A stretch of DNA of 64,000 nt from Planctomycetaceae bacterium (lineage in GTDB: Bacteria; Planctomycetota; Phycisphaerae; Sedimentisphaerales; Anaerohalosphaeraceae): NCBI GenBank assembly GCA_021372945.1, contig JAJFTK010000082.1:33382-97381 (forward strand). Reading direction: 5' to 3'. The notes under the pieces were generated by a model, which had not been told where the DNA came from, did not search any database, and worked only from the letters and a program-made list of their open reading frames with translations. Below are positions 15,759-64,000 of this stretch, piece by piece (the stretch's first letter is position 1; the number at the start of each line of letters is the position of its first letter). A program made the position numbers and the translations under genes.

Positions 15759-15786
15759 ATTGATTATTGATTATCGATTATTGACC
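15759..15786. repeat. Heptanucleotide tandem array (ATTGATT x4)
   Basis: Four consecutive 7-bp units (ATTGATT, ATTGATT, ATCGATT, ATTGACC) ending right at the 5' end of the beta-CASP nuclease gene. Confidence 0.8.
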
Positions 15787-15832: not shown

Positions 15833-15867
15833 TTCATTGTTCATTATTCATTCTGCATTACTCATTT
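15833..15867. repeat. Heptanucleotide tandem array (TTCATTA-like x5)
   Basis: Five 7-bp units: TTCATTG, TTCATTA, TTCATTC, TGCATTA, CTCATTT. The last unit contains the mltA stop codon (15862-15864). Confidence 0.75.
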
Positions 15868-44804: not shown

Positions 44805-44839
44805 GTTTCGAATTTCGACATCCGTATTTTGAGTTTTAG
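44805..44839. repeat. Heptanucleotide tandem array (ATTTCGA-like x5)
   Basis: Five 7-bp units: GTTTCGA, ATTTCGA, CATCCGT, ATTTTGA, GTTTTAG. It fills the gap between the P-type ATPase and ABC ATPase genes and overlaps the ATPase stop codon at 44836-44838. Confidence 0.65.
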
Positions 44840-51342: not shown

Positions 51343-52350
51343 TTGTTCATCAAATTGCTGACCATTGCCAAAAACACCTTTATCGAAACAATCCGACAAC
51401 CCATCTACGCTGTTATTATTGTCTTCGCCCTCATTCTGATGTTGCTTGCGCCGTCAATCAGCATGTACACCCTGGACGAAGATGTCAAACTCCTGAGGGA
51501 ATTGGGCTTATCTACGCTCTTTTTAGCGGGATTGTTCATAGCCGTTTTCGCCGCCACCAGTACAATTACCGAAGAAATCGAGTCCGGCACGATTACAACC
51601 GTGCTTTCCAAGCCCATCAGCCGCTCTGTTTTCGTGGTCGGCAAGTTCTTCGGTGTCGCCGGAGCGGTGACAATGGCCCATGCCCTGCTGACCATGTCCT
51701 TCCTGATGGCCACCCGCCATGGCGTTCTGGAAACTGCCTCTGATGAGATCGACTGGACGGTCATTACCGCCGCAGCCCTTGCCTTCGGGGGTGCATTTCT
51801 CTTAACTGCTTTGATTAATTATATTTATGATTGGAACTTCTCCTCCACGGCGATCGTTTTAAGCACGATTTTCTGTACCTTTGCTATTATTTTTCTGCTG
51901 CTGGTCGATAAACACTGGAAGTTCAACCCTTCCGAAAACCAGTTCGAAACATTTGACCTGGTCGCCTCGGTACTGCTCTTAATGGCCATCATCCTCCTGG
52001 TGGCACTGGCGACGCTGTTTTCCACGCGTTTCAATGAAGTGCTGACGTTGACCTTCTGTGTGGGGTTTTTCCTGCTTGGACTCATCAGCGACTGGGCCTT
52101 CGGCCGGTTTGCTGTGAAGAATCTTGGAGATGTTTCATCCGGTTTGTGGGACAAGGCCGGCATCCTGTTGGCCAAAGCGGGCGTAATTTTGATCCCTAAT
52201 CTGCAGATCTTCTGGGTCAGCGACGCGATCTATGAAAAAGGCTCTGTTCCGGCGGATTATCTAATCATGGCCGCTGTTTATACGGTGCTCTATACGGTTG
52301 GCATCCTGGCACTTGCTATCGCCTTCTTCCAAAAACGCCAGGTCGGCTGA
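51343..52350 (+). CDS. ABC-2 family transporter permease
   Basis: About 335 aa. TTG 51343 is preferred because AAAGGG lies 6 bp upstream and the family begins near LLTIAKNTFIETIRQP; a GTG at 51319 is possible but has no ribosome site. About six membrane segments, with the ABC-2 motif EEIESGTITTVLSKPISRS after the second. The first half is similar in style to the permease at 42177-43553, but no ATPase gene is adjacent. It could share the ATPase encoded at 43546-44784; that is inference. Confidence 0.8.
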   Translation: MFIKLLTIAKNTFIETIRQPIYAVIIVFALILMLLAPSISMYTLDEDVKLLRELGLSTLFLAGLFIAVFAATSTITEEIESGTITTVLSKPISRSVFVVGKFFGVAGAVTMAHALLTMSFLMATRHGVLETASDEIDWTVITAAALAFGGAFLLTALINYIYDWNFSSTAIVLSTIFCTFAIIFLLLVDKHWKFNPSENQFETFDLVASVLLLMAIILLVALATLFSTRFNEVLTLTFCVGFFLLGLISDWAFGRFAVKNLGDVSSGLWDKAGILLAKAGVILIPNLQIFWVSDAIYEKGSVPADYLIMAAVYTVLYTVGILALAIAFFQKRQVG

Positions 52351-52557
52351 TTCTCACCATGGACTGATACGGATTCGCACTAAGCAGTTTGTTCACGGAT
52401 TATATCCGTCTTTGCCGCCCTTTCCCTCCGCCATTCGGCTCACGGCCAGACAGGGATACCCGCGTTGCATTGACTGCCGGAATGGCATAGTCCCATCGTT
52501 GCAAATGGCAGAACAGACTTGGCCGACGGTAAGATGCGGGAGAGATGCGAGGAAATG

Positions 52558-52572
52558 TAAGTAATTTACTTA
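52558..52572. promoter_or_regulatory. Palindrome, possible operator upstream of groEL1
   Basis: TAAGTAA-T-TTACTTA, a perfect 7-bp inverted repeat about 240 bp upstream of groEL1. Confidence 0.35.
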
Positions 52573-52700
52573 GTTAGAGTTACGTTAAATATTATGGGGC
52601 ATCGCAAAAAGTGCGGATTATGCTGGTATTAAATTTGCAAACAGGGACAATTTTATATACGCCCATTTGCGCGTGTGATACCCTTTCAGGGTAAGGAAGA

Positions 52701-52720
52701 GGCAGGCGTGGAAGCCTGCC
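52701..52720. repeat. GC-rich hairpin element
   Basis: GGCAGGC-GTGGAA-GCCTGCC, a perfect 7-bp stem followed by CCTACC. Resembles the hairpins at 14317 and 59107; not followed by a T-run. Confidence 0.55.
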
Positions 52721-52809
52721 CCTACCGATTGCGGCTCTGCGTGCCGCGAAAGAACGGTCGGACTAATGAGAGTTTAGATAAATAATGGAAATTTAGGAGA
52801 GTTGAGATT

Positions 52810-54468
<1,659 letters not shown>

Positions 54469-54469
54469 T

Positions 54470-54504
54470 ATCAAAAATCAAAAATAAAATATAAAAAATA
54501 AAAT
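54470..54504. repeat. Heptanucleotide tandem array (ATAAAAT-like x5)
   Basis: Five 7-bp units: ATCAAAA, ATCAAAA, ATAAAAT, ATAAAAA, ATAAAAT. It starts 1 bp after the groEL1 stop and ends 17 bp before groES. Confidence 0.75.
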
Positions 54505-54521
54505 ACACAGGAGAGTTTGAT

Positions 54522-54812
54522 ATGAAGTTAGTACCGTTGGAAGATCGAGTTGTTGTGAAGCCGCAGGAAGCAGAGAACAAGACCGCCGGAGGGATCGTGC
54601 TGCCGGATACAGCCAAAGAGAAACCGCAGATGGGCAAGGTGATCGCGGTCGGTCCGGGCAAGACGCTGGACAACGGCAAGCGCAGCACGATGAGCGTGAA
54701 GAAGAATGACGTGGTGCTATACGGCAAGTATGGCGGCTCGGACGTGGAAGTGGACGGCGAGGATTACAAGATCATCCGCGAGAGCGAGATCCTGGGCGTC
54801 GTGGAAAAGTAA
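54522..54812 (+). CDS. groES: Co-chaperonin GroES
   Basis: A 96-aa co-chaperonin of normal length. It starts MKLVPLEDRVVVKPQEAE and has the mobile loop around ENKTAGGIVLPDTAKEKP (IVL binds GroEL) and the closing strand EDYKIIRESEILGVVE. Caps GroEL rings. A GGAG ribosome site precedes it. It lies between two groEL genes and could serve both. Confidence 0.96.
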   Translation: MKLVPLEDRVVVKPQEAENKTAGGIVLPDTAKEKPQMGKVIAVGPGKTLDNGKRSTMSVKKNDVVLYGKYGGSDVEVDGEDYKIIRESEILGVVEK

Positions 54813-54824
54813 TGCGACTTTTTA

Positions 54825-54851
54825 ACGCTGATTACGCTGATTACTCTGATT
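54825..54851. repeat. 9-bp tandem repeat (ACGCTGATT x3)
   Basis: Units ACGCTGATT, ACGCTGATT, ACTCTGATT between groES and groEL2. The period is 9 bp, unlike the heptamer arrays. Confidence 0.65.
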
Positions 54852-54928
54852 CAAAAAACGATTAAAGGATCAGCGACGATCGGCGAAATCTGTTTACAAG
54901 ACAATTGAATAGACCGGAGAAATAAGCG

Positions 54929-56545
54929 ATGGCAAAACAGATGATGTTTCAGGAAAATGCGCGGGCGCAGTTGAAGGAAGGCCTGGCGCAGCTTGCGGCG
55001 GCGGTGAAGGTGACGCTGGGGCCGACGGGGCGGAATGTGCTCCTGCAGAAGAGCTTCGGCTCGCCGCGCGTGACGAAAGATGGCGTGACCGTGAGCAAAG
55101 AAGTGGACCTGCCGGAACCCTTTAAGAATATCGGCGCCAAGATGGTCAACCAGGTCGCCAGCAAGACCAGCGACGTGGTGGGCGACGGGACGACGACGGC
55201 CACGGTGCTGACGGAGGCGATCTATAATGAGGGCCTCAAGTACGTGACCGCGGGCGTGAACCCGGTGGCGATCCAGCGCGGCATCAATAAGGCGGCTGGC
55301 GTGGTGACGGATTTTATCACAGCACAGGCCAGGCCCGTGAAGGGACATGACGATATCGCCAAGGTCGGCACCATCAGCGCCAACAACAACCCCGAGGTCG
55401 GCAGCATTTTGGCTGACGCGATGGACAAAGTCGGGCGTGAAGGCGTGATCGAGGTCGAGGAAGGCAAGGCGATGCAGACCGAACTGGAGGTCGTCGAAGG
55501 CATGCAGTTCGATAAAGGGTATATCTCTCCGTACTTCATGACCAACCCGGACACGCTGGAGGCGGTGCTGGAGGATGCGTACATCCTGCTGCACGAGAAA
55601 AAGATCTCGAGCCTGCGTGACCTGCTGCCGCTGCTGGAGAAGATCGCGCAGATGGGCGCCCCCCTGCTGATCGTGGCTGAAGACGTTGAAGGCGAGGCGC
55701 TGGCGGCGCTGGTGATCAACCGGCTGCAAGGCGTGCTGAAAGTTTGCGCGGTGAAGGCGCCGGGGTTTGGCGATCGCCGCAAGGCCATGCTGCAGGACCT
55801 GGCGATCCTGACCGGCGGCCAGGTCATCACCGAGGACCTTGGCATCAAGCTGGAAAACATCGAAGTGACGCAGCTTGGCAAGGCGGCCAAGATCGTGATC
55901 GGCAAAGAAGAGACCACCGTCATCGAAGGCGAGGGCAAGAAGAAAGACATCACGGCGCGATGCGATCAGATCCGCAGCCAGATCGAAAAAACGACCAGCG
56001 ATTACGACCGCGAGAAGCTGCAGGAGAGGCTTGCCAAGCTGACCGGCGGCGTGGCGGTGATCAAGGCCGGCGCCAGCACCGAGACCGAGATGAAGGAACG
56101 CAAGGATCTGCTTGACGACGCTCTGCACGCCACGAAGGCAGCCGCGCAGGAAGGCATCATCCCGGGCGGCGGCACGATCTATCTGCGGGCGATCCCCGAG
56201 GTGGAAAAGGCCAAGAGCAAGGCGCGCGGGGATGAGAAGATCGGCTTCGACATCGTGATGAACGCGCTGAAATCGCCAATACGGCAGATCGTGGACAATG
56301 GCGGCGGCGAAGGCGACGTGGTGGTGGCCGAACTGATGGAAAAGAACGGCAATATCGGCTATGACGCAGCCGGCGGCCAGTACGTGGATATGATCAAGGC
56401 CGGCATCATCGATCCGGCCAAAGTGGCAAGGATCGCGCTGCAGAACGCCGCGTCCGTGGCGGGGCTGATGCTGACGGCCAACGTCGTCATCACGGACCTG
56501 AAAGAGGACAAGGAAGAAAACGCCGTTCATGGGGCGATCTTCTAA
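54929..56545 (+). CDS. groEL: Chaperonin GroEL, copy 2 (no GGM tail)
   Basis: A 538-aa chaperonin with an intact ATP site ([10 protein letters not shown]) and apical domain. Its C terminus ends in a charged segment ([15 protein letters not shown]) instead of Gly-Gly-Met repeats. Such divergent tails are known in specialised second GroELs of other bacteria and change the cavity wall. The sequence contains [16 protein letters not shown] and [16 protein letters not shown], closer to classical GroEL than copy 1 in those regions. A strong terminator at 56561-56595 ends the transcript. Confidence 0.96.
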
Positions 56546-56560
56546 ACGATTATAAAGACA

Positions 56561-56595
56561 GGCTGGGCCCGAAATAAAAGGGCTCGGCCTTTTTT
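56561..56595 (+). terminator. Intrinsic terminator after groEL2
   Basis: Stem GGCTGGGCCC (56561-56570) pairs with GGGCTCGGCC (56580-56589), including two G-T pairs. The loop is 9 nt and six T residues follow. Confidence 0.85.
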
Positions 56596-56623
56596 AAAAT
56601 CCGAGATGATATAAGTAAGCGTT

Positions 56624-56637
56624 CACGCTTGAGCGTG
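56624..56637. promoter_or_regulatory. Short inverted repeat upstream of dnaJ
   Basis: CACGCT-TG-AGCGTG, perfect 6-bp arms about 50 bp before the dnaJ ATG. Could be an operator or a weak hairpin. Confidence 0.3.
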
Positions 56638-56685
56638 TTCGGTGCAAGAACAAGCTGAAGCCTGAACTCTTACAAGAGGATTGAT

Positions 56686-57837
56686 ATGGCCAAGAGGGAT
56701 TATTACGAAGTGCTGGGAGTTGAAAAAGGCGCTTCCACGGATGACATCAAGCGGGCATATCGCCGATTGGCCATCAAGTATCACCCTGACAAGAACCCGG
56801 GCAACAAGGAGGCAGAAGAGAAGTTCAAGGAATGCGCCGAGGCCTACGAGGTTCTCGGCGACGAGGAGAAACGCAAACGCTACGACCAGTTCGGTCATGA
56901 GGGGCTGCGCGGCTCGGGCGTTCATGATTACCAGCACATGAACGTGCAGGATATCAGCGACATGTTCGGCGATATGTTCGGCGACATGTTCGGCGATATC
57001 TTTGGCGGCGGCCGGCGAGGCGGTCGCGGAGGCGGCGGCCGGCGCGGTGCGGCGCGCGGGTATGATCTTGAGACGACCGTCGAACTGACGCTGGAGGAAG
57101 TGGCAAAGGGAACCGAAAAAACGATCGAATTCACGCGGCAGGATACGTGCCCGGACTGCAGCGGGACCGGCGTGGCCAAGGGCAAACAGCCCAGCCGCTG
57201 CAACACTTGCGGCGGCAGCGGGCAGGTGCAGCGTGCCGGTCTGGGCGGATTCTTCCAGATGGTTTCGACGTGCCCGCAGTGCCAGGGGACGGGCCAGGTC
57301 ATCACGGATCCGTGCCGCACGTGCCGGGGCCAGGGGACGGTACCGAAGAAACGCTCCGTGACGGTGAAGATTCCGGCCGGCGTGCACGAGGGCCAGGGCA
57401 TCCGCATCGCCGGTGAAGGCGAACCCGGCCGAGGCGGCGGACCGCGAGGCGACCTGTACTGCTACGTGCGGATCAAGGCGCATCCGTTCCTGATGCGGGA
57501 TGGGTCGAACCTGGTGGTCACGGTGCCGCTGAGCTTTACGCAAATGACGCTGGGCGCGATGATCGATGTGCCGACGCTGGACGGGACGCGCAAACTGAAA
57601 GTACCCGCCGGGACCCAGCACGGAAGCATCCTGCGGGTGCGCGGACAAGGCCTGCCGGAAGTAAGAAGCGGATACAAGGGAGACCTGCTGGTACAGGTGG
57701 CGGTAGAGATCCCAAAGCGGCTCAGCGCGGAGCAGGACAAGCTCTTGCGTGAGTACGCCCGGACGGAGGAAAAGGACGTAAACTCCGAGAGCAAGAATTT
57801 CTTTGAGAAAATTCGTCAACATTTTAACGGCAAATAA
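56686..57837 (+). CDS. dnaJ: Chaperone DnaJ
   Basis: A 383-aa type I J-protein. J domain 1-70 with HPD in YHPDKNPG; Gly/Phe-Met-rich region about 75-120; zinc-binding domain with the four CxxCxGxG repeats [24 protein letters not shown] and CRTCRGQG; C-terminal peptide-binding and dimer domains. Delivers substrates to DnaK and stimulates its ATPase. dnaK is not in the window. Separated from grpE by 64 bp that include a heptamer array. Confidence 0.97.
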
Positions 57838-57853
57838 CTCCTGAAAAGCGTAT

Positions 57854-57881
57854 TGAGAATCGTCGATTGACGATGGACGAT
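57854..57881. repeat. Heptanucleotide tandem array (TGACGAT-like x4)
   Basis: Four 7-bp units: TGAGAAT, CGTCGAT, TGACGAT, GGACGAT, between dnaJ and grpE. Confidence 0.65.
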
Positions 57882-57901
57882 CGAAATAATGAGACAGAAT
57901 C

Positions 57902-58483
57902 ATGAGCAAAGAAGATAAGAAAGCTGAAAAAAAGATCGAAGAGCTTGAAGAACAATTGAAAACCCTTCAGCAAGAGATCGAAACGCTCAAAATTGAAAAG
58001 CAGGATGTTTTTGAACAGCTTCAGCGGGTTGGCGCCGACTATGCCAACTATCAAAAGCGCACGATCAGGCAAATCACCGATTCGGTCGCTTATGAGAAGA
58101 AGGCGATCATCCGTTCGATCCTGCCGTCAATCGATAATTTCGAGCATGCGCTGGCACACGCGATCGCGACGCAGGGCGAAGAGGACAACCTGGTCAAAGG
58201 CATTCAACTGGTATTTACGCACCTGCTGGATGCCCTGAAGGCCCATGGCGTGGAACGGATCGAGGCCGGCGGCAAGAAGTTTGACCCTGTCGAACACGAG
58301 GCCATGATGCAGCGATGTGAACCGGATAAGCAAGACAATCTCGTGCTGGAGGTTTACCAGACCGGCTACCGGATGGGTGACCAGATCGTGCGGCCGGCGA
58401 AGGTGATCGTCAATAAACTGTCTGCCAGTGGGGCACAGACGGAACCGGTGGAACCGGCTGAAGAAACAACGGACGTTGAATAA
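57902..58483 (+). CDS. grpE: Nucleotide exchange factor GrpE
   Basis: A 193-aa protein. A long N-terminal coiled coil (about 5-60, Lys/Glu-rich) leads to the GrpE head with QRVGADYANYQKRT, LPSIDNFEHAL and FDPVEHEAMMQ, then DQIVRPAKVIVNK near the end. Releases ADP from DnaK. The order dnaJ-grpE without dnaK is unusual but not unique. Confidence 0.95.
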   Translation: MSKEDKKAEKKIEELEEQLKTLQQEIETLKIEKQDVFEQLQRVGADYANYQKRTIRQITDSVAYEKKAIIRSILPSIDNFEHALAHAIATQGEEDNLVKGIQLVFTHLLDALKAHGVERIEAGGKKFDPVEHEAMMQRCEPDKQDNLVLEVYQTGYRMGDQIVRPAKVIVNKLSASGAQTEPVEPAEETTDVE

Positions 58484-58511
58484 TTGTAAACTGTATATTG
58501 CGGGTGGACCG

Positions 58512-58826
58512 ATGCCGACATACGAATATAAATGCAGCGGATGCGAACAAGTGGTGGAGATCTTTCAATCGATCACGGCCAGGCCGGTGAAGAAGTGCCC
58601 CCTGTGCGGTAAGCTGAAACTAAAGCGCCTGCTGGGAACGGGCGCGGGGCTGATATTCAAAGGATCAGGCTTCTACGCGACGGATTACCGCAGCGAAGGC
58701 TACAAGAAAGCGGCTCAGGGCGAAAGGCCCGCGGCCCCGGCGGATAAAAAGGAAACCAAGACGGAGACGAAGTCCGAGACAAAGACAGAATCAACGTCTC
58801 CGGCAAGAGACAAGAAAACAGCGTAA
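58512..58826 (+). CDS. FmdB-family zinc-ribbon protein
   Basis: A 104-aa protein from ATG 58512. The N-terminal zinc ribbon begins MPTYEYKCSGC and has C8, C11, C29 and C32, as in the FmdB/CxxC_CxxC_SSSS regulatory family. GTGAGLIFKGSGFYATDY is the conserved family segment. The C-terminal 35 residues are a Lys/Thr/Glu-rich low-complexity tail. Often found near chaperone genes; its molecular role is not established. 28 bp after grpE. Confidence 0.88.
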   Translation: MPTYEYKCSGCEQVVEIFQSITARPVKKCPLCGKLKLKRLLGTGAGLIFKGSGFYATDYRSEGYKKAAQGERPAAPADKKETKTETKSETKTESTSPARDKKTA

Positions 58827-58854
58827 GCGCGAGCCGGCTTGATGAACTGTTCAC

Positions 58855-59049
58855 TTAAAAGATCGTGTTCAAATCCGAAGCCATCAGTGTTCCAAAGCCT
58901 GTGGTCGCAGCCAAAACGATGGAATCGATCGAAAAACCGCCTTCCCTTGCTCCCACTTTAAGTACAAAGCTGCACTGTGTGTTTGCAGCCAGATCGGCGG
59001 CTGTGATGCCAATACGCCTGTCAAGACAACCACGTCCAATGGTCGCCAA
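58855..59049 (-). pseudogene. Possible C-terminal remnant of a secreted carbohydrate-binding-like protein
   Basis: An open frame of 64 codons with no ribosome site and only a TTG at its 5' end. The translation includes CSFVLKVGAREGGFSIDSIV, a pattern resembling the closing strands of carbohydrate-binding or lectin-like beta-sandwich domains in large secreted proteins. No upstream part of such a gene is visible; the frame closes before greA. This is a weak resemblance judged by eye. Confidence 0.25.
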
Positions 59050-59106
59050 GATCGGACCATTGCCGCTCCATTACTCTCGCGGCTAAGATGGGACGGATAG
59101 CTCCAA

Positions 59107-59132
59107 GGCAGAGGTAGAACCCTGCCTCTGCC
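59107..59132. repeat. GC-rich hairpin element between convergent genes
   Basis: GGCAGAGG (59107-59114) and CCTCTGCC (59125-59132), a perfect 8-bp stem with a 10-nt loop just downstream of the greA stop. May act as a terminator although no T-run follows. Confidence 0.55.
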
Positions 59133-59142
59133 AGAGCACGCG

Positions 59143-59622
59143 TTATTTAAATTCGCTGCGGGCAATATCTAACACTTCGAAGTGCAACTCGCCTTTTGGT
59201 ACGACTGCGGTCACTTTGTCCCCCACGCGGCTGTCGAGGATGGCCTGGCCGATGGGCGAGAGGATGGAGATGGAGTCGTCGGTGAGGTCGGCGTCGTAAG
59301 GGCCCAGGAGCTGCCAGGTTACCTTGTTTTGAGTATCCAGGTTGAGCAGCGTGATGACCGCGCCGAAAGCGGCCTTGTCGAGGGGTGCCAGGGTGCAGTC
59401 GGTGGGCTTTGAGAAGTTGAGCTTGCCGCGAGTCTCGCCGAGACGGCCCTCGACAAAGCCGAGGTTCTGTCGGCCGTAGATGTATTCGCCGTTTTCACTG
59501 AGGTCGCCCTGCTCGCGAGCCTCGCCGACGCGTTTTCGCAATTCGACGGCCTCCTTTTCGAGCTGGGCCAGTTCCTCTTTGAGCTTGTTATATCCCGTTT
59601 GTGAGATCGGGTGGATTTCCAT
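59143..59622 (-). CDS. greA: Transcription elongation factor GreA
   Basis: A 159-aa protein with the normal GreA length. The N-terminal coiled coil has the tip sequence GDLSENGEY with the catalytic acidic residues (consensus GDLSENAEY). The C-terminal FKBP-like domain includes DDSISILSPIGQAILDSRVGD. It stimulates transcript cleavage by stalled RNA polymerase. The promoter is at 59708-59736, and the leader carries eight copies of a heptamer. Confidence 0.92.
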   Translation of the reverse strand: MEIHPISQTGYNKLKEELAQLEKEAVELRKRVGEAREQGDLSENGEYIYGRQNLGFVEGRLGETRGKLNFSKPTDCTLAPLDKAAFGAVITLLNLDTQNKVTWQLLGPYDADLTDDSISILSPIGQAILDSRVGDKVTAVVPKGELHFEVLDIARSEFK

Positions 59623-59637
59623 AATTCCGTCACCACT

Positions 59638-59693
59638 TATCAGTTATCAGTCATCAGTCAACAGTCATCAGTCATCAGTCATCAGTCATCAGT
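59638..59693. repeat. Heptanucleotide tandem array (CATCAGT x8)
   Basis: Eight consecutive 7-bp units: TATCAGT x2, CATCAGT, CAACAGT, CATCAGT x4. The longest array in the window, inside the predicted greA mRNA leader. Confidence 0.92.
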
Positions 59694-59707
59694 TTCATTT
59701 GAGAGGC

Positions 59708-59736
59708 ACTATAACAGAGGATGTTTCGATTTTCAA
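59708..59736 (-). promoter_or_regulatory. Candidate promoter for greA
   Basis: Minus strand: TTGAAA (59736-59731), 17 bp, TATAGT (59713-59708). The -35 box lies inside a heptamer array. Confidence 0.65.
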
Positions 59737-59765
59737 TTTGCGATTTCAATTTTCCATTTTAGTCA
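59724..59765. repeat. Heptanucleotide array, degenerate (TTTCGAT-like x6)
   Basis: Units TTTCGAT, TTTCAAT, TTGCGAT, TTCAATT, TTCCATT, TTAGTCA; the last two or three are weak. Overlaps the greA -35 box. Confidence 0.55.
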
Positions 59766-59803
59766 AATCCGAATTCGGTTTATCCTTTATGGTGCGTTTT
59801 CGA

Positions 59804-59832
59804 TTGACAAGCCTTGTGTACGCAAGTAGGAT
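59804..59832 (+). promoter_or_regulatory. Candidate promoter for icd
   Basis: TTGACA (59804-59809), 17 bp, TAGGAT (59827-59832), giving a leader of about 60 nt. Confidence 0.6.
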
Positions 59833-59850
59833 ACCGGGCTGTTTAATTGC

Positions 59851-59878
59851 TTATTGATGATAGATGATTGACGACTGT
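59851..59878. repeat. Heptanucleotide tandem array (TGATTGA-like x4)
   Basis: Units TTATTGA, TGATAGA, TGATTGA, CGACTGT in the predicted icd leader. Confidence 0.55.
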
Positions 59879-59901
59879 AAATAGATACAGGAGATGAGTT
59901 T

Positions 59902-60978
59902 ATGGTAAAGGTGACGTTGATACGGGGTGACGGGATCGGGCCTGAGATCGCGGAGGCGGCGCGGCGGTGCATTGATGCGACGGGCGCCAAGATCGAGTGG
60001 GACGTGCAGGAGGCGGGGGTGGATGTGATGGCGACGGCGGGGACTCCCCTGCCGGAAGCGACACTGGAGAGCGTGCGGCGAAACGGGGTCGCGCTGAAGG
60101 CGCCGATCACGACGCCGGTGGGCACGGGGTTTCGCAGCGTGAACGTGCACCTGCGGCAGATCTTTGAGTTGTACGCGTGCGTGCGTCCGTGCAAGAGCTA
60201 CCAGGGCGTGCGGAGCCGGTACGACAATATCGATTTGGTGATCGTGCGCGAGAATACCGAGGACCTGTACGCGGGCATCGAGTTCGAGAAGGGTAAGGCC
60301 GAGACGCTGGAGCTGATCGAGTGGCTCAACGCGCACAGCAGCCGCAAGATCGGGCCCAATACGGGCGTGAGCATCAAGCCGATCTCGGTGGAGGGGACGA
60401 CGCGGATCGTGAAGTACGCGTTTGAGTATGCGCGCAAGAACGGACGCAAGAAGGTGACGAGCGTGCACAAGGCGAACATCATGAAGTACTCTGACGGGTT
60501 GTGGCTGGAGATCAGCCGCAATGTGGCCAGGCAGTACGCGGATATTGAGTTCGAGGACCGCATCGTGGATAATATGTGCATGCAGCTTGTGCAGAAGCCC
60601 GAGCTGTACGACGTAATCGTGCTGCCGAATTTATATGGCGACATTTTGAGCGATCTGTGCGCGGGGCTGGTCGGCGGGCTGGGGGTGGCGCCGGGGGCGA
60701 ACATCGGCAACAAGGGCGCGATCTTCGAGGCGACCCACGGCAGCGCACCCAAGTACAAGGGGCTCAACAAGGTCAACCCTGTGGCGCTGATCCTGAGCGG
60801 CGTGCTGATGCTGCGGCATCTGGAGATGAACGACCAGGCGGACCGGCTGGAGAAGGCTGTGGCGGACGTGATCGCGGAAGGCAAGTCGGTGACGTATGAT
60901 ATGAAGCCCGAGCGCGATGACCCGACGGCAGTAGGAACGAAGGAAATGGCAGACGCGATTATCGCAAAGATGCGATAA
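59902..60978 (+). CDS. icd: NAD(P)-dependent isocitrate dehydrogenase (isocitrate/isopropylmalate dehydrogenase family)
   Basis: A 358-aa enzyme of the short beta-decarboxylating dehydrogenase type. It starts with [12 protein letters not shown]; the substrate-binding segment is [17 protein letters not shown], with [12 protein letters not shown], then the metal site in [17 protein letters not shown] and the cofactor site in [19 protein letters not shown] and the absence of a leu cluster favour isocitrate over 3-isopropylmalate. The short length fits the NAD-type group. Ribosome site GGAGATGAG. Confidence 0.85.
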
Positions 60979-60986
60979 TCGCAAAA

Positions 60987-61014
60987 TCCGAAATTCTAAA
61001 CTCTAAATACTAAA
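60987..61014. repeat. Heptanucleotide tandem array (TTCTAAA-like x4)
   Basis: Units TCCGAAA, TTCTAAA, CTCTAAA, TACTAAA, starting 9 bp after the icd stop; decayed 7-bp units continue to about 61042. Confidence 0.7.
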
Positions 61015-61065
61015 CAAATTCAAATTTCAAAATCTCAAATAAGAAACAAGTAAGAAAACAAATCA

Positions 61066-62256
61066 TTGAATCAGAACGCGTTTCGAGAGATCGTTTCGGG
61101 GAAAGACCGGCGGCGGCGGGCGGCGCTGCTGCGACCGGGGTTGCGGGTGCTGTCATGGGGCTGGGCGGCGATCATCCGTGCGCGAAACGCGGGGTATGAT
61201 GGAGGGTGGCTGCGGGTGTATGACGCAAGCGGAAGCAAGGCCAAGCAGAGCTTGACCGTGGCACCCAATAATGGACAGAGAACAGAGGACAGAGGACAGA
61301 GGACATGCACGGGCCAGCCGCCCGTACCGCCGGTTATCAGCGTGGGGAATATCACGACGGGCGGGACGGGCAAGACGCCGCTGGTTGTGTGGTTGTGCAA
61401 TTACCTGCACGGGCGCGGGGTAAAGTGTGCGATTTTGACGCGCGGGTATAAGACGTGCCCGGGCCAGGTGACGGACGAGCCGGCGCTGCTTGGCAAGGCG
61501 TGCCCGGCGGCGGCGGTGGTGGTGGACCATGACCGGGTCGCAGGGGCACGAAAGGCGATCGAGCAGCACCATGCCCAGGCACTGGTGCTGGATGACGGGT
61601 TCCAGCATCGACGGCTGCGGCGAGACCTGGATATTGTGGCTGTCGATGCGACGTGCCCGTTTGGGTACGGGCGGATGCTGCCGGCGGGGTTGCTGCGGGA
61701 GCCGCTGTGCGGGCTCAAACGCGCCGGGGCGGTCGTGATCACGCGTTTTGACCAGGCGGACGAAGAGCAGGTCAAGCGGCTGGAGCAGGAGATCCGGCGG
61801 CTGGCGCCGCGTGCGGCGGTCGCCAAGGCGGTGCATCGGCATACGCACGCGGTGACGGCGGGCAGCCGGCGGATGACGATCGAGGAACTGCGGCAGCGGC
61901 CGGTGTTTGCATTTTGCGGGATCGGCAATCCGAAGGCGTTCTATGACTGCCTGGCGCAGCAGGCGATCCGGCTGACGGGGACGCGGACGTTCGATGACCA
62001 TCACCCCTACACGGACGGCGAGATGAAAGACGTGTTCCGGCAGGCGGCGGCCAGCGGCGCCGAGGTGATCCTGTGCACGCAGAAGGATTGGGTCAAGAGC
62101 GCCCTGCTGGCGCCGGCGATGAAGCCGGTGTTGGCGTATATGGCGATGGAACTGGAGTTTGTGGAAGGGCTGGAACCGTTGAAAACGCTGGTCGATGAAA
62201 CAATAGAAAAATCCGAAATACGAAATCCGAAATTCGAAACAAATACAAAATCATGA
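61066..62256 (+). CDS. lpxK: Tetraacyldisaccharide 4'-kinase LpxK, with repeat-derived insertion and tail
   Basis: A 396-aa kinase that phosphorylates the lipid A disaccharide at the inner membrane. TTG 61066 is used because the family N terminus (FREIVSGKDRRR, then LSWGWAAIIRARNAGYD) starts there; no ribosome site is visible. Walker A GGTGKT is at 99-104, about 40 residues later than usual. The extra part (about 62-86) includes GQRTEDRGQRT, encoded by a heptamer array. ILTRGYK, LDDGFQHRRL and DDHHPYTDGEM are family motifs. The last residues (about 379-396) are also encoded by a heptamer array. Shows that LPS-type lipid A is made. Confidence 0.88.
   Translation: MNQNAFREIVSGKDRRRRAALLRPGLRVLSWGWAAIIRARNAGYDGGWLRVYDASGSKAKQSLTVAPNNGQRTEDRGQRTCTGQPPVPPVISVGNITTGGTGKTPLVVWLCNYLHGRGVKCAILTRGYKTCPGQVTDEPALLGKACPAAAVVVDHDRVAGARKAIEQHHAQALVLDDGFQHRRLRRDLDIVAVDATCPFGYGRMLPAGLLREPLCGLKRAGAVVITRFDQADEEQVKRLEQEIRRLAPRAAVAKAVHRHTHAVTAGSRRMTIEELRQRPVFAFCGIGNPKAFYDCLAQQAIRLTGTRTFDDHHPYTDGEMKDVFRQAAASGAEVILCTQKDWVKSALLAPAMKPVLAYMAMELEFVEGLEPLKTLVDETIEKSEIRNPKFETNTKS
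61275..61305. repeat. Heptanucleotide tandem array inside lpxK (ACAGAGG x4)
   Basis: Units ACAGAGA, ACAGAGG x3 and a partial ACA, in frame within lpxK codons about 70-80. Confidence 0.9.
62210..62237. repeat. Heptanucleotide tandem array (AATCCGA x4) at the lpxK 3' end
   Basis: Units AATCCGA, AATACGA, AATCCGA, AATTCGA, with weaker units to 62251. It encodes the last residues of LpxK. Confidence 0.85.
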
Positions 62257-62281
62257 AATTCGAATGTTCAAAACAGGCAGA

Positions 62282-62300
62282 CACGGGCAAGATGCCCGTG
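62282..62300. repeat. GC-rich hairpin element
   Basis: CACGGGCA-AGA-TGCCCGTG, a perfect 8-bp stem between lpxK and hldE, 19 bp before the hldE ATG. Confidence 0.65.
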
Positions 62301-62319
62301 CCACGATGGAAGAGTTCGT

Positions 62320-63804
62320 ATGAGTTATAAGAAACTGCTGAAGGCGGTGACGAACCTGGGATCGCCGCGCGTGCTGCTGGTGGGCGATTTCATGCTGGAT
62401 AGCTATATCTACGGCGATGCGCTGCGGATCAGCCCGGAGGCGCCCGTGCAGGTCCTGAAGGTGGTGCGGAGAGAATACGCCGGGGGCGGGGCCTCGTCGG
62501 TGGCGGCGGACGTGCTGGAGCTTGGGGCCAAGTGTTATTGCGTGGGCGTGATCGGCAACGATATGAACGGCCGCAAGCTGATCGAGATACTGAAGACGCG
62601 CGGGGCCGAGACGGACGGCATTGTGGTGCTTGAGGAGCGGCCGACGATCACGAAGGAGCGGATGATCGGCCTGGCGCAGCATCGGCACCGACAGCAGCTT
62701 TTGCGGATCGATGACGAATGCACCGACGGATTGACGGACAGCCAATACGAGCGGCTGATGGGGCTGTACCTGGAGCAACTGCCGCAGTGCGATGTGGTGT
62801 GTTTGCAGGATTATAATAAGGGCCTGCTGAGCAAGGATTTCTGTCGATTGCTGATCGAGGCGGCCAGGACGGCGGGCAAGCGGGTGCTGGTGGACCCGCC
62901 GCTGCACCAGGACTACAGCAAATTCATCGGCGCCAGCCTGATTACGCCAAATCGCAAGGAGACAAGCTGTGCGGTGGGCTTTGAGATCAAGACGATCGCT
63001 GACGCCGAGCGCGCATCGAAACTGCTGCGGGAATCGCTGCAGCTGGAGATGACCGTCATCACGCTGGACAAGGAGGGTGCGTACCTGCAGACGGCGACCT
63101 TGGGGCAGCATCTGCCGACGCAGGCGCGGACGGTCTATGACGTGACGGGCGCCGGCGATATGATGCTGGCGACGCTGGCAGTGACGCTGGCGGCCGGCAA
63201 CGACCCGGTAACGGCGCTTCAGCTTGCCAATATCGCCAGCGGCATCGAAGTCGAAAAGTTCGGCGTGGCAACGGTGAGCGTCGATGAGATCGTCAACGAG
63301 ATCATCTCGACGCATCGCGGCAAGGTCGGCAAGATCCATTCCGCCGAGGACCTTGTCAAACAGCTTGCGTTTCATCGGCAGCACAAAGAGACGATCGTGT
63401 TCACAAACGGGTGCTTTGACGTGCTGCATCGCGGGCATATCGAATATCTGAAGTTCTGCCGGGACAAAGGCGATATCGTGGTCGTCGGGCTAAACAGCGA
63501 CGCATCGGTGCGGCAGCTTAAAGGGCCGCAGCGCCCGATCAATAATCAGCATGACCGGGCGGCAGTGCTGGCGGCGCTGGAATGCGTGGATTACGTGACG
63601 ATCTTCGAAGAGCCGGACCCGCTGAATATCGTCATGAAGGTGCATCCGGATGTGCTGGTGAAGGGGCAGGACTGGGCGCAAAAGGGAGTGGTTGGCAGGG
63701 AGTTCGTGGAGTCGTACGGCGGGCGGGTGGAACTGGCGCCGCTGGTCGATGGCAAGAGTTCGACGGCCACGATCGAAAAACTTAAAGGACTGCACGAAGA
63801 GTAA
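62320..63804 (+). CDS. hldE: Bifunctional heptose-7-phosphate kinase / heptose-1-phosphate adenylyltransferase HldE
   Basis: A 494-aa fusion. Residues about 1-330 are a PfkB/ribokinase-type kinase with LVGDFMLDSYIYGD, GGGASSVAADVLELGA and the catalytic DVTGAGDMMLATLAV. Residues about 350-494 are a cytidylyltransferase-like nucleotidyltransferase with FTNGCFDVLHRGHIEYL and GLNSDASVRQLKGPQRPI. It makes ADP-heptose precursors for the LPS inner core. Its location after lpxK forms a small LPS group. An upstream hairpin may affect its translation. Confidence 0.95.
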   Translation: MSYKKLLKAVTNLGSPRVLLVGDFMLDSYIYGDALRISPEAPVQVLKVVRREYAGGGASSVAADVLELGAKCYCVGVIGNDMNGRKLIEILKTRGAETDGIVVLEERPTITKERMIGLAQHRHRQQLLRIDDECTDGLTDSQYERLMGLYLEQLPQCDVVCLQDYNKGLLSKDFCRLLIEAARTAGKRVLVDPPLHQDYSKFIGASLITPNRKETSCAVGFEIKTIADAERASKLLRESLQLEMTVITLDKEGAYLQTATLGQHLPTQARTVYDVTGAGDMMLATLAVTLAAGNDPVTALQLANIASGIEVEKFGVATVSVDEIVNEIISTHRGKVGKIHSAEDLVKQLAFHRQHKETIVFTNGCFDVLHRGHIEYLKFCRDKGDIVVVGLNSDASVRQLKGPQRPINNQHDRAAVLAALECVDYVTIFEEPDPLNIVMKVHPDVLVKGQDWAQKGVVGREFVESYGGRVELAPLVDGKSSTATIEKLKGLHEE

Positions 63805-63809
63805 TTGAC

Positions 63810-63826
63810 GGTGGACACGGTCCACC
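63810..63826. repeat. Short perfect hairpin after hldE
   Basis: GGTGGAC-ACG-GTCCACC, 7-bp stem, 6 bp after the hldE stop. No T-run follows. Confidence 0.5.
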
Positions 63827-63846
63827 CGGCGAATGGCAAGTCCCGA

Positions 63847-63867
63847 GATTTGAAATTTGAAATCAGT
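63847..63867. repeat. Heptanucleotide array (AATTTGA-like x3)
   Basis: Units GATTTGA, AATTTGA, AATCAGT downstream of hldE; short and partly degenerate. Confidence 0.45.
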
Positions 63868-64000
63868 ACTGTCCCATTATAAGTCGAATAAGGACAGTTG
63901 GTTACAGTTTTGCTGCTCTTTAAAATCATAGTCATATCCTGTAAGTGCTTGTTTTAGCGTGGTTTTCTCGAAAAGTAAGATACTGATGATTTGGAGTATT
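63868..64000. other. AT-rich right edge with inverted repeat
   Basis: ACTGTCC (63868-63874) and GGACAGT (63892-63898) form a perfect 7-bp inverted repeat with a 17-nt spacer. The sequence to the window end is visibly more AT-rich than the coding DNA to its left. No gene is seen. Could be the border of another element or a leader of the next gene. Confidence 0.35.

What the first reader, a model, noticed from the sequence alone, without database searches (positions are those of the whole stretch)
57854..63867. A family of tandem arrays that share a 7-bp period but not a sequence
At least twelve short arrays in the window have the same unit length (7 bp) and different unit sequences: 15759, 15833, 44805, 54470, 57854, 59638, 59724, 59851, 60987, 61275, 62210 and 63847. 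Examples are CATCAGT x8, ATTGATT x4, ACAGAGG x4, AATCCGA x4 and ATAAAAT-like x5. Eight of them lie in the last 6.2 kb. They abut stop codons (groEL1, icd), overlap stops (mltA, the P-type ATPase), lie in leaders (greA, icd), or enter an ORF (lpxK). A fixed period with a free sequence suggests a mechanism that measures length, such as a slippage or end-joining process, rather than spread of one element. Heptanucleotide short tandem repeats are known in cyanobacteria; I cannot say how well they are described in this lineage.
Basis: partly seen in the sequence, partly recalled or inferred. Interest (0 to 1): 0.75.

Follow-up and report, generated by a model that had tools for sequence, protein, structure and literature searches.

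The report
Seven-base repeat arrays between genes
The gaps between genes of this bacterium carry many short DNA arrays with a seven-base beat; they are real and beyond chance, but not free in sequence: some are arms of small hairpin-like elements copied around the genome, a known but unexplained type of bacterial repeat seen here with shared design rules.

Summary
The period-7 excess is real. In a 0.94-Mb sample of the genome, intergenic DNA holds 21 period-7 and 18 period-14 arrays against 0.1 each in shuffles; periods 5, 6, 8 and 9 give 1, 0, 7 and 11. 'Fixed period, free sequence' is half right. Two listed arrays (60987, 62210), probably a third (44805), are arms of one dispersed element, [AAAYNCK]n-AAACAAATTC...CAAAAC, whose full form is a 150-165 bp imperfect palindrome; its close opposite pairs keep one polarity, 13 of 13. 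The 61275 array lies in a ~30-residue LpxK insertion absent from 13 of 13 relatives with a detectable LpxK, beside a copy of a transposase-flanking repeat. Arrays cluster after stop codons (16 of 41; 6.0 expected). In own-order arrays positions 5 and 7 vary while 1-4 and 6 hold (28 of 43). Occurrence is patchy within a genus. Published Xanthomonas GGGAATC repeats share the design, not the sequence. New variant of a known kind; mobiliser unidentified.

The parts
15759..15784 (.). 7-bp array, ATTGATT unit
   Evidence: TRF 3.7 copies; period-7 scan
15833..15866 (.). 7-bp array, TTCATTN unit; on the sense strand it starts 2 bp after a stop codon
44780..44850 (-). probable degenerate single arm of the dispersed AAAYNCK element (seed at 44815); approximate bounds
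   Evidence: seed pattern in the fetched sequence; not in the BLAST rows
54470..54503 (+). AT-rich 7-bp array 1 bp after the groEL1 stop
57862..57883 (+). about three GACGATN units in the grpE leader; below the array threshold
   Evidence: sequence; BLAST to L087 and L037 arrays
59637..59693 (-). ACTGNTN array (CAGTNAN on +), 14 bp upstream of greA
   Evidence: TRF 7.9 copies
59724..59760 (.). TTTCAAT-like weak array
   Evidence: TRF 5.4 copies, 74% matches
59851..59876 (+). ATTGATG-like units before icd; below threshold
   Evidence: sequence; BLAST to L037 11661 and L036 8295
60982..61060 (+). single arm of the AAAYNCK element, starting just after the icd stop
   Evidence: 16 BLAST rows at 14 places of the own sample, itself included; matches in other genomes of the order
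61234..61323 (+). insertion of about 30 codons in lpxK, absent from 13 of 13 relatives with a detectable LpxK
   Evidence: tblastn
61236..61266 (+). 31-bp stretch, 28 of 31 identical to one arm of the inverted repeat flanking a Y1 transposase gene (L310 2492-2524)
61273..61305 (+). ACAGAGR array inside the lpxK insertion
62209..62275 (+). single arm of the AAAYNCK element, running over the lpxK stop
62281..62304 (.). REP-like palindrome ACACGGGC..GCCCGTGC shortly after the element
63848..63863 (.). ATTTGAA x2.3; too short to claim
   Evidence: TRF score 32

Best explanation
The arrays are the repetitive parts of several families of small, non-coding, dispersed intergenic elements in an unnamed bacterium (Planctomycetota by recall; no call names it). 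The best-seen family has an array of AAAYNCK units on the outside, a conserved AAACAAATTC...CAAAAC part inside and, in its full form, a second, inverted copy of the whole, so that it is a 150-165 bp imperfect palindrome; many copies are single arms (shown). How it works, inferred: copies spread as non-autonomous, MITE-like or mosaic (BIME-like) elements, at times together with REP palindromes of Y1 (IS200/IS605-type) transposases; they survive mostly in gaps between genes, above all next to stop codons; within a copy the array gains and loses whole 7-bp units by slippage or unequal exchange. Constraint on positions 1-4 and 6 of the unit suggests that a protein or the copying step reads the array in 7-bp steps. 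Shown: dispersal, palindrome, polarity, position in the own genome, patchiness, unit-number differences between two copies in one relative. Not shown: transposition, the enzyme, any function.
For: Dispersed copies with a conserved non-repeated part: 16 BLAST rows at 14 places for the 60970-61070 query in 0.94 Mb, itself included; 18 seed matches in the own sample, of which two (L072, L079) look like chance; exact pattern matches in 39 of 60 genomes, own included. Palindrome: of 16 neighbouring seed pairs within 250 bp, 13 are '+-', 0 '-+', 2 '++', 1 '--' (the 13 are own genome 2, G022 2, IMG/VR contigs 9, whose independence was not tested); in complete genome G155 4 of 4 close pairs are '+-'. 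Besides the query itself, 11 listed places of G022 and, over the two searches, 5 of G034 cover most of the element in one piece. At site 1 the orthologous gap lacks it in both congeners searched, G030 and G034. Hairpin z-scores of 5 copies: -1.4 to -4.0. Inverted partners near arrays: own 8 of 48 (2.4 expected), order 6 of 32 (1.6), F. stagni 8 of 36 (1.8), named cyanobacteria 50 of 134 (6.7), other named 36 of 63 (3.2). Insertion with a transposase-associated repeat: lpxK. Unit number: ACTG arrays L290 19161 and L292 9306 of G033, with nearly identical flanks, have 6 and at least 9 ACTG cores. Y1_Tnp gene number correlates with element number over 60 genomes (rho 0.50, p 4e-5; densities averaged over 36 genera rho 0.47, p 0.004; 11 genomes of the own genus rho 0.82, p 0.002); DDE_Tnp_1 does not (rho 0.13, p 0.33).
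Against: Of 7 Y1 matches in the own genome I read 5 with their flanks: 0 of 5 has heptamer arms at its ends; theirs are mostly GC-rich REP-like repeats. REP and array presence per gap are not associated (1 of 5 REP gaps, p 0.40; length-matched p 0.35). Over 60 genomes ACTG arrays do not follow Y1 number (rho 0.16, p 0.21), though within the own genus they do (rho 0.70, p 0.016). The correlations ignore phylogeny except for genus means. At site 2 the congener G034 keeps what looks like a decayed arm, and no target duplication was established. Direct partners near arrays are about as frequent as inverted ones in the own genome (9 of 48), the order (7 of 32), F. stagni (9 of 36) and cyanobacteria (42 of 134), not in the other named loci (14 of 63). 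No match in the plasmid collection for one full palindrome.
Confidence: 0.55

Rival explanations
1. [quoted passage not shown] arrays arise in place from any sequence.
For: Period 7 and its multiples dominate in the own genome, in 118 bait-selected loci of many phyla (7 bp 118, 8 bp 20, 6 bp 7 with the bait flavour left out) and in 200 kb of Flavobacterium stagni (7 bp 30, 8 bp 6). Many flavours occur once (36 classes in 48 arrays). Unit number differs between copies.
Against: Dispersed families with conserved non-repeated parts, fixed polarity of inverted pairs, absence of arrays from the sampled parts of a same-genus genome (G007: 0 in 356 kb) and a same-family genome (G016: 0 in 400 kb), and structured variation inside own-order arrays are not expected of slippage alone.
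Confidence: 0.2
2. Regulatory arrays: a DNA- or RNA-binding protein reads tandem 7-nt sites (five of seven bases), and the arrays act in leaders and 3' ends, as suggested for TAACTGA repeats.
For: Positions 1-4 and 6 constant, 5 and 7 variable, in 28 of 43 own and order arrays with exactly two variable columns (null 0.35); ACTG cores with many different triplets in F. stagni, in a search that fixed the core; the greA leader array reads ACTGATG on the greA strand; on an IMG/VR contig the element lies in sense before several genes, whose functions I did not search.
Against: Codirectional ACTG arrays are equally sense and antisense (40 against 43 in the named loci); arrays are not enriched next to start codons (4 of 43 own sides against 6.7 expected; 19 of 190 against 25.5 in the named loci); many flavours in one genome would need many specificities; arrays of the 118 loci do not show the 5/7 rule (7 of 21 non-bait, 24 of 62 bait-like).
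Confidence: 0.2
3. Chance periodicity of AT-rich intergenic DNA.
For: Three of the eight recovered arrays are short or AT-rich, and four of the twelve listed are below TRF's threshold.
Against: Dinucleotide shuffles give 0.0-0.6 arrays per period against 21 for period 7; 0 of 50 shuffles of the window's gaps reach the observed count.
Confidence: 0.02

Closest known systems
GGGAATC heptamer repeats of Xanthomonas (Rehm et al. 2015, PMC4692102; sections 10 and 15 and found passages seen)
   Same: 7-bp unit; positions 1-4 and 6 conserved (GGGANTN); 70 and 75 close pairs in convergent orientation in two species; close to or over the stop codon of the upstream gene; no leading/lagging preference
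   Different: Unit sequence and G-quadruplex potential differ; no conserved inner part such as AAACAAATTC...CAAAAC in what I saw; the paper treats one flavour, here there are many
TAACTGA direct repeats of Beggiatoaceae, cyanobacteria and Bacteroidetes (MacGregor 2015, PMC4679880; abstract and sections 7, 8, 10, 24 seen)
   Same: ACTG-centred unit (an AACTGAT-class array occurs here), patchy occurrence, differences in steps of 7
   Different: In the Guaymas Beggiatoaceae mostly forward and just upstream of starts; here next to stops and in either orientation; units here vary at two positions
Short tandemly repeated repetitive (STRR) heptamers of Calothrix and the heptameric SSR excess (Mazel 1990, Mrazek 2007; recalled, and as cited in PMC4692102)
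   Same: Heptameric unit, intergenic excess, several flavours
   Different: Palindromic element structure and REP-linked insertion not seen in what I could read
MITEs and REP/BIME elements with RAYT (Y1) transposases (PMC3733652; found passages)
   Same: Small dispersed palindromes in gaps; the lpxK insertion carries a near copy of a Y1-flanking repeat
   Different: Arms are tandem heptamers; no Y1 gene with such arms among the 5 own genes read

Membership tests
Heptameric SSR / STRR class | 7-bp period over-represented in intergenic DNA | tested here: met
Heptameric SSR / STRR class | Same unit dispersed at several places of one genome | tested here: met
   ACTG flavour at 12 places of the sample; AAAYNCK
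Heptameric SSR / STRR class | The Calothrix STRR unit sequences | not tested
   original paper not read
Xanthomonas GGGAATC-type repeats | GGGANTN unit, G-quadruplex potential | tested here: not met
   no such unit among the 48 own arrays listed
Xanthomonas GGGAATC-type repeats | Positions 1-4 and 6 constant, 5 and 7 variable | tested here: met
   28 of 43 own and order arrays with two variable columns; not met in the 118 loci of other phyla (7 of 21 non-bait, 24 of 62 bait-like)
Xanthomonas GGGAATC-type repeats | Close pairs in convergent orientation | tested here: met
   AAAYNCK: 13 of 13 opposite pairs; ACTG flavour, CAGT arm first: 11 of 12 in non-cyanobacterial, 8 of 12 in cyanobacterial loci, 80 of the 118 loci used. 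In the window itself only single arms
Xanthomonas GGGAATC-type repeats | Nearness to the upstream stop codon | tested here: met
   16 of 41 against 6.0 expected, own; 56 of 218 against 35.3, named loci; G022 3 of 8 (1.7) and G036 2 of 16 (2.0) do not show it clearly
TAACTGA repeats | Just upstream of start codons, forward | tested here: not met
   4 of 43 own start sides against 6.7 expected; the greA array is an exception
MITE | Terminal inverted repeats in a short dispersed element | tested here: met
MITE | Target site duplication / clean empty site | tested here: inconclusive
   two sites; congeners about 77-80% identical, gaps too divergent
MITE | Autonomous partner with the same ends | tested here: inconclusive
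   0 of 5 own Y1 genes read have heptamer arms; no other transposase family was looked at for its ends
REP/RAYT elements | GTAG or CGTC foot | not tested
   -

The most novel reading that the evidence does not exclude
A sequence-independent architecture (7-bp step, constant positions 1-4 and 6, convergent pairs, stop-codon neighbourhood) has arisen or spread in unrelated bacterial phyla with different unit sequences, which points to an unrecognised common machine, a transposition or repair complex or a multimeric binding protein, that steps along DNA in seven base pairs.
Probability: 0.2. Interest if true: 0.8.

Novelty: new variant of a known kind. Interest (0 to 1): 0.5.

Why it matters
The excess of heptamer repeats in bacteria has been in print since 2007 (as cited in PMC4692102), and I found no accepted cause in the papers seen. 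Here it is tied to concrete, testable features: an element with a palindromic form and a polarity, an insertion inside a named gene, and genomes of one genus with and without arrays. That makes the question 'slippage, mobile element or binding site' directly testable by comparing strains.

Tried and rejected
Universal heptamer vocabulary across phyla: after leaving out ACTG flavours, sharing of exact unit classes between own genome and F. stagni (1 of 30, P 0.52), cyanobacteria (3 of 30, P 0.26), Chloroflexi (0 of 30) and other named loci (0 of 30) is what letter-permuted units give; only sharing within the order exceeds it (5 of 30, P 0.002). With ACTG flavours kept, P is 0.02-0.03 for three of these, but those loci were fetched by an ACTG-flavour bait.

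Replichore-dependent orientation: one search listed only + places first for G155 and looked striking; the full list shows mixed strands, and 311 of 500 shuffles reach the observed two-arc contrast. Rejected.

3'-UTR sense element: AAAYNCK copies have the upstream gene on the same strand in 10 of 17 own cases and on the opposite strand in 7. Rejected as a rule.

Backup stop codons in three frames: stop triplets are about as frequent antisense as sense in codirectional arrays (own 69 sense, 77 antisense; named loci 721, 668; G022 17, 14; only G036 leans, 25 to 14). Rejected.

Hairpin always following the element: 1 of 26 against 19 of 496 control gaps. Rejected.

RAYT with heptamer ends: 0 of 5. 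REP-array association: not significant; the close cases (lpxK, L310 188, L037 16605) are post hoc.

4-V-1-V as a general rule of heptamer arrays: not seen in the 118 bait-selected loci. Rfam at gathering scores: no family in the window or in four loci. Literature searches listed no description of the AAAYNCK palindrome in the held library; I opened four papers only, and most subscription papers are not held.

Scripts with faults: one search crashed and was redone; one search read only part of the files and was redone; one search failed on an import and was redone. One search cut printed arrays at 60 letters.
Full report
What was checked. TRF finds period-7 rows at 8 of the 12 listed places. 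A lag-7 match scan of the window's 35 gaps finds 4-5 arrays where shuffles give 0.0-0.04. I fetched stretches of it (943,893 bases in 60 pieces with the window; part of the contigs chosen because one search had found CAGTCAT-like arrays there). In intergenic DNA of that sample, 7 and 14 bp stand out (21 and 18 arrays, 0.1 each in shuffles), then 9 (11) and 8 (7); 5 and 6 are nearly absent.

Not free in sequence. The 48 arrays of the sample (score 11 or more) fall into 36 unit classes by consensus, but some flavours recur. ACTG units occur at 12 places. BLAST with the icd-lpxK gap gives 16 rows at 14 places and with the lpxK-hldE gap 18 rows, themselves included; the 18 include matches to a REP-like palindrome rather than to the array. 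Lined up, the copies share [AAAYNCK]n, then AAACAAATTC, then about 30 less conserved bases ending near CAAAAC (the seed pattern read backwards gives 14 matches against 35, so single seeds can be chance). Similar matches appear in many of 60 relatives, exact pattern matches in 39 of 60 genomes and, for a longer pattern, in 18 of 294 genomes drawn from the phylum, own genome included in each, and in 38 stretches of virus-assigned contigs, some perhaps chance.

A palindrome with a polarity. Seeds often come in opposite pairs 73-129 bp apart: 13 '+-' and 0 '-+', beside 2 '++' and 1 '--', plus 4 of 4 in complete genome G155 and, in the partial listing, 2 of 2 in G173 and 1 of 1 in G207. The A-rich arm comes first; the stretches between the arms differ by eye. 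G022 has 11 further listed places covering most of the 160 bp. Five copies fold into one long imperfect stem, z -1.4 to -4.0. In the window only single arms are present. For the ACTG flavour, neighbouring opposite arrays have the CAGT arm first in 11 of 12 non-cyanobacterial and 8 of 12 cyanobacterial cases.

Comparison of orthologous gaps. At one G022 site both congeners G030 and G034 lack the palindrome; at the other G034 has what looks like a decayed arm. Flanks are 77-80% identical, which hides insertion junctions.

An array that came with an insertion. LpxK of the window genome has about 30 residues between its N-terminal region and the conserved VISVGN motif that are absent from all 13 relatives in which tblastn found LpxK (of the 15 subjects given, L211 gave no match and G022 and L208 are the same gene). 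The inserted DNA contains the ACAGAGR array and, 6 bp before it, a 31-bp stretch 28/31 identical to one arm of the inverted repeat that flanks a Y1 transposase gene of the same genome (0 of 500 shuffles reach the score). A third copy of that repeat follows an AAAYNCK arm at L310 188-218. This is the clearest case of an array arriving as part of a larger insertion.

Position. In the own sample, 16 of 41 array sides that face a gene's 3' end lie at -4 to +10 of the stop codon (6.0 expected for uniform placement in the gap), against 4 of 43 start sides (6.7 expected). In 204 intergenic arrays of the 118 named loci it is 56 of 218 (35.3 expected) and 19 of 190 (25.5). G022 and G036 show no clear effect. 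Genes were called by simple methods of my own, so ends are approximate; arrays rich in stop triplets can themselves end an open frame.

Structure of variation. In own and order genomes 28 of 43 arrays with exactly two variable columns have them two apart, that is constant positions 1-4 and 6 (simulated null 0.35; p 6e-5; 29 of 51, 25 of 36 and 10 of 15 at other thresholds, p 0.001, 3e-5 and 0.013). In the 118 loci of other phyla it is 7 of 21 non-bait and 24 of 62 bait-like arrays, in F. stagni 4 of 8. In F. stagni the ACTG core carries many different triplets (in which the pattern fixed the core). Slippage copies with random mutation would not be expected to show such a rule.

Patchiness. G007 (same genus) and G016 (same family) have 0 arrays in 356 and 400 kb. 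Counts of overlapping ACTGNTNACTGNTNACTG matches range from 54 and 31 to 1 and 0 within one genus, and 121 against 0 within another; several of these genomes are incomplete. Y1_Tnp gene number follows AAAYNCK number (rho 0.50) while DDE_Tnp_1 does not (0.13), but the 5 Y1 genes read are flanked by other repeats.

Known background. Heptameric excess, an explanation by polymerase slippage, and three heptamer families of Calothrix are cited in PMC4692102 (passages). That paper's Xanthomonas repeats match the present arrays in unit length, in conserved positions 1-4 and 6, in convergent pairing, in nearness to stops and in lack of leading/lagging preference, though not in sequence. The TAACTGA repeats of PMC4679880 resemble the ACTG flavour. 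PMC6749651 (passages) names a heptamer satellite family in Chloroflexus aurantiacus. I did not find the AAAYNCK palindrome described in the held library.

Verdict. Real as a set, not chance; partly dispersed palindromic elements; architecture shared with a published repeat of another phylum. The mobiliser, any function and the reason for seven remain open.

Noticed in passing
window 63849-63880: CAGTACTGTCCCATTATAAGTCGAA... recurs at L077 9812 and L075 4891 (87-93% over 27-32 bp, the query ending at 63880): another dispersed sequence near the window end.
   Followed up: no
L059 6109-6300: Six REP-like palindromes (GCACGGGC..GCCCGTG) in a row, 34 bp apart.
   Followed up: no
L260 16738-16816 (G022): A second dispersed sequence whose arms are 9-bp repeats (CATGAAGNN) facing an inverted CTTCATGGTT, matched at many places of G022.
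   Followed up: partly
L347, L328, L316 (IMG/VR contigs): AAAYNCK arms in sense orientation in front of several genes of related contigs, one between what looks like a duplicated gene start; gene functions not searched.
   Followed up: partly
L278-L287 (Flavobacterium stagni): Gaps built of several repeat modules of 6, 7, 8 and about 11 bp in recurring order, e.g. [CAGTNNN]n-[AAGTCRT]n-[TCTAAAN]n.
   Followed up: partly
L290 18800 and 19161, L292 9306 (G033): ACTG arrays followed by a shared GC-rich flank; the last two also share the other flank and differ in unit number.
   Followed up: partly
window 52001-64000: GC skew is +0.12 to +0.20 here against -0.08 in the 4 kb before; 9 of the 10 genes called beyond 52 kb are on the + strand.
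   Followed up: no
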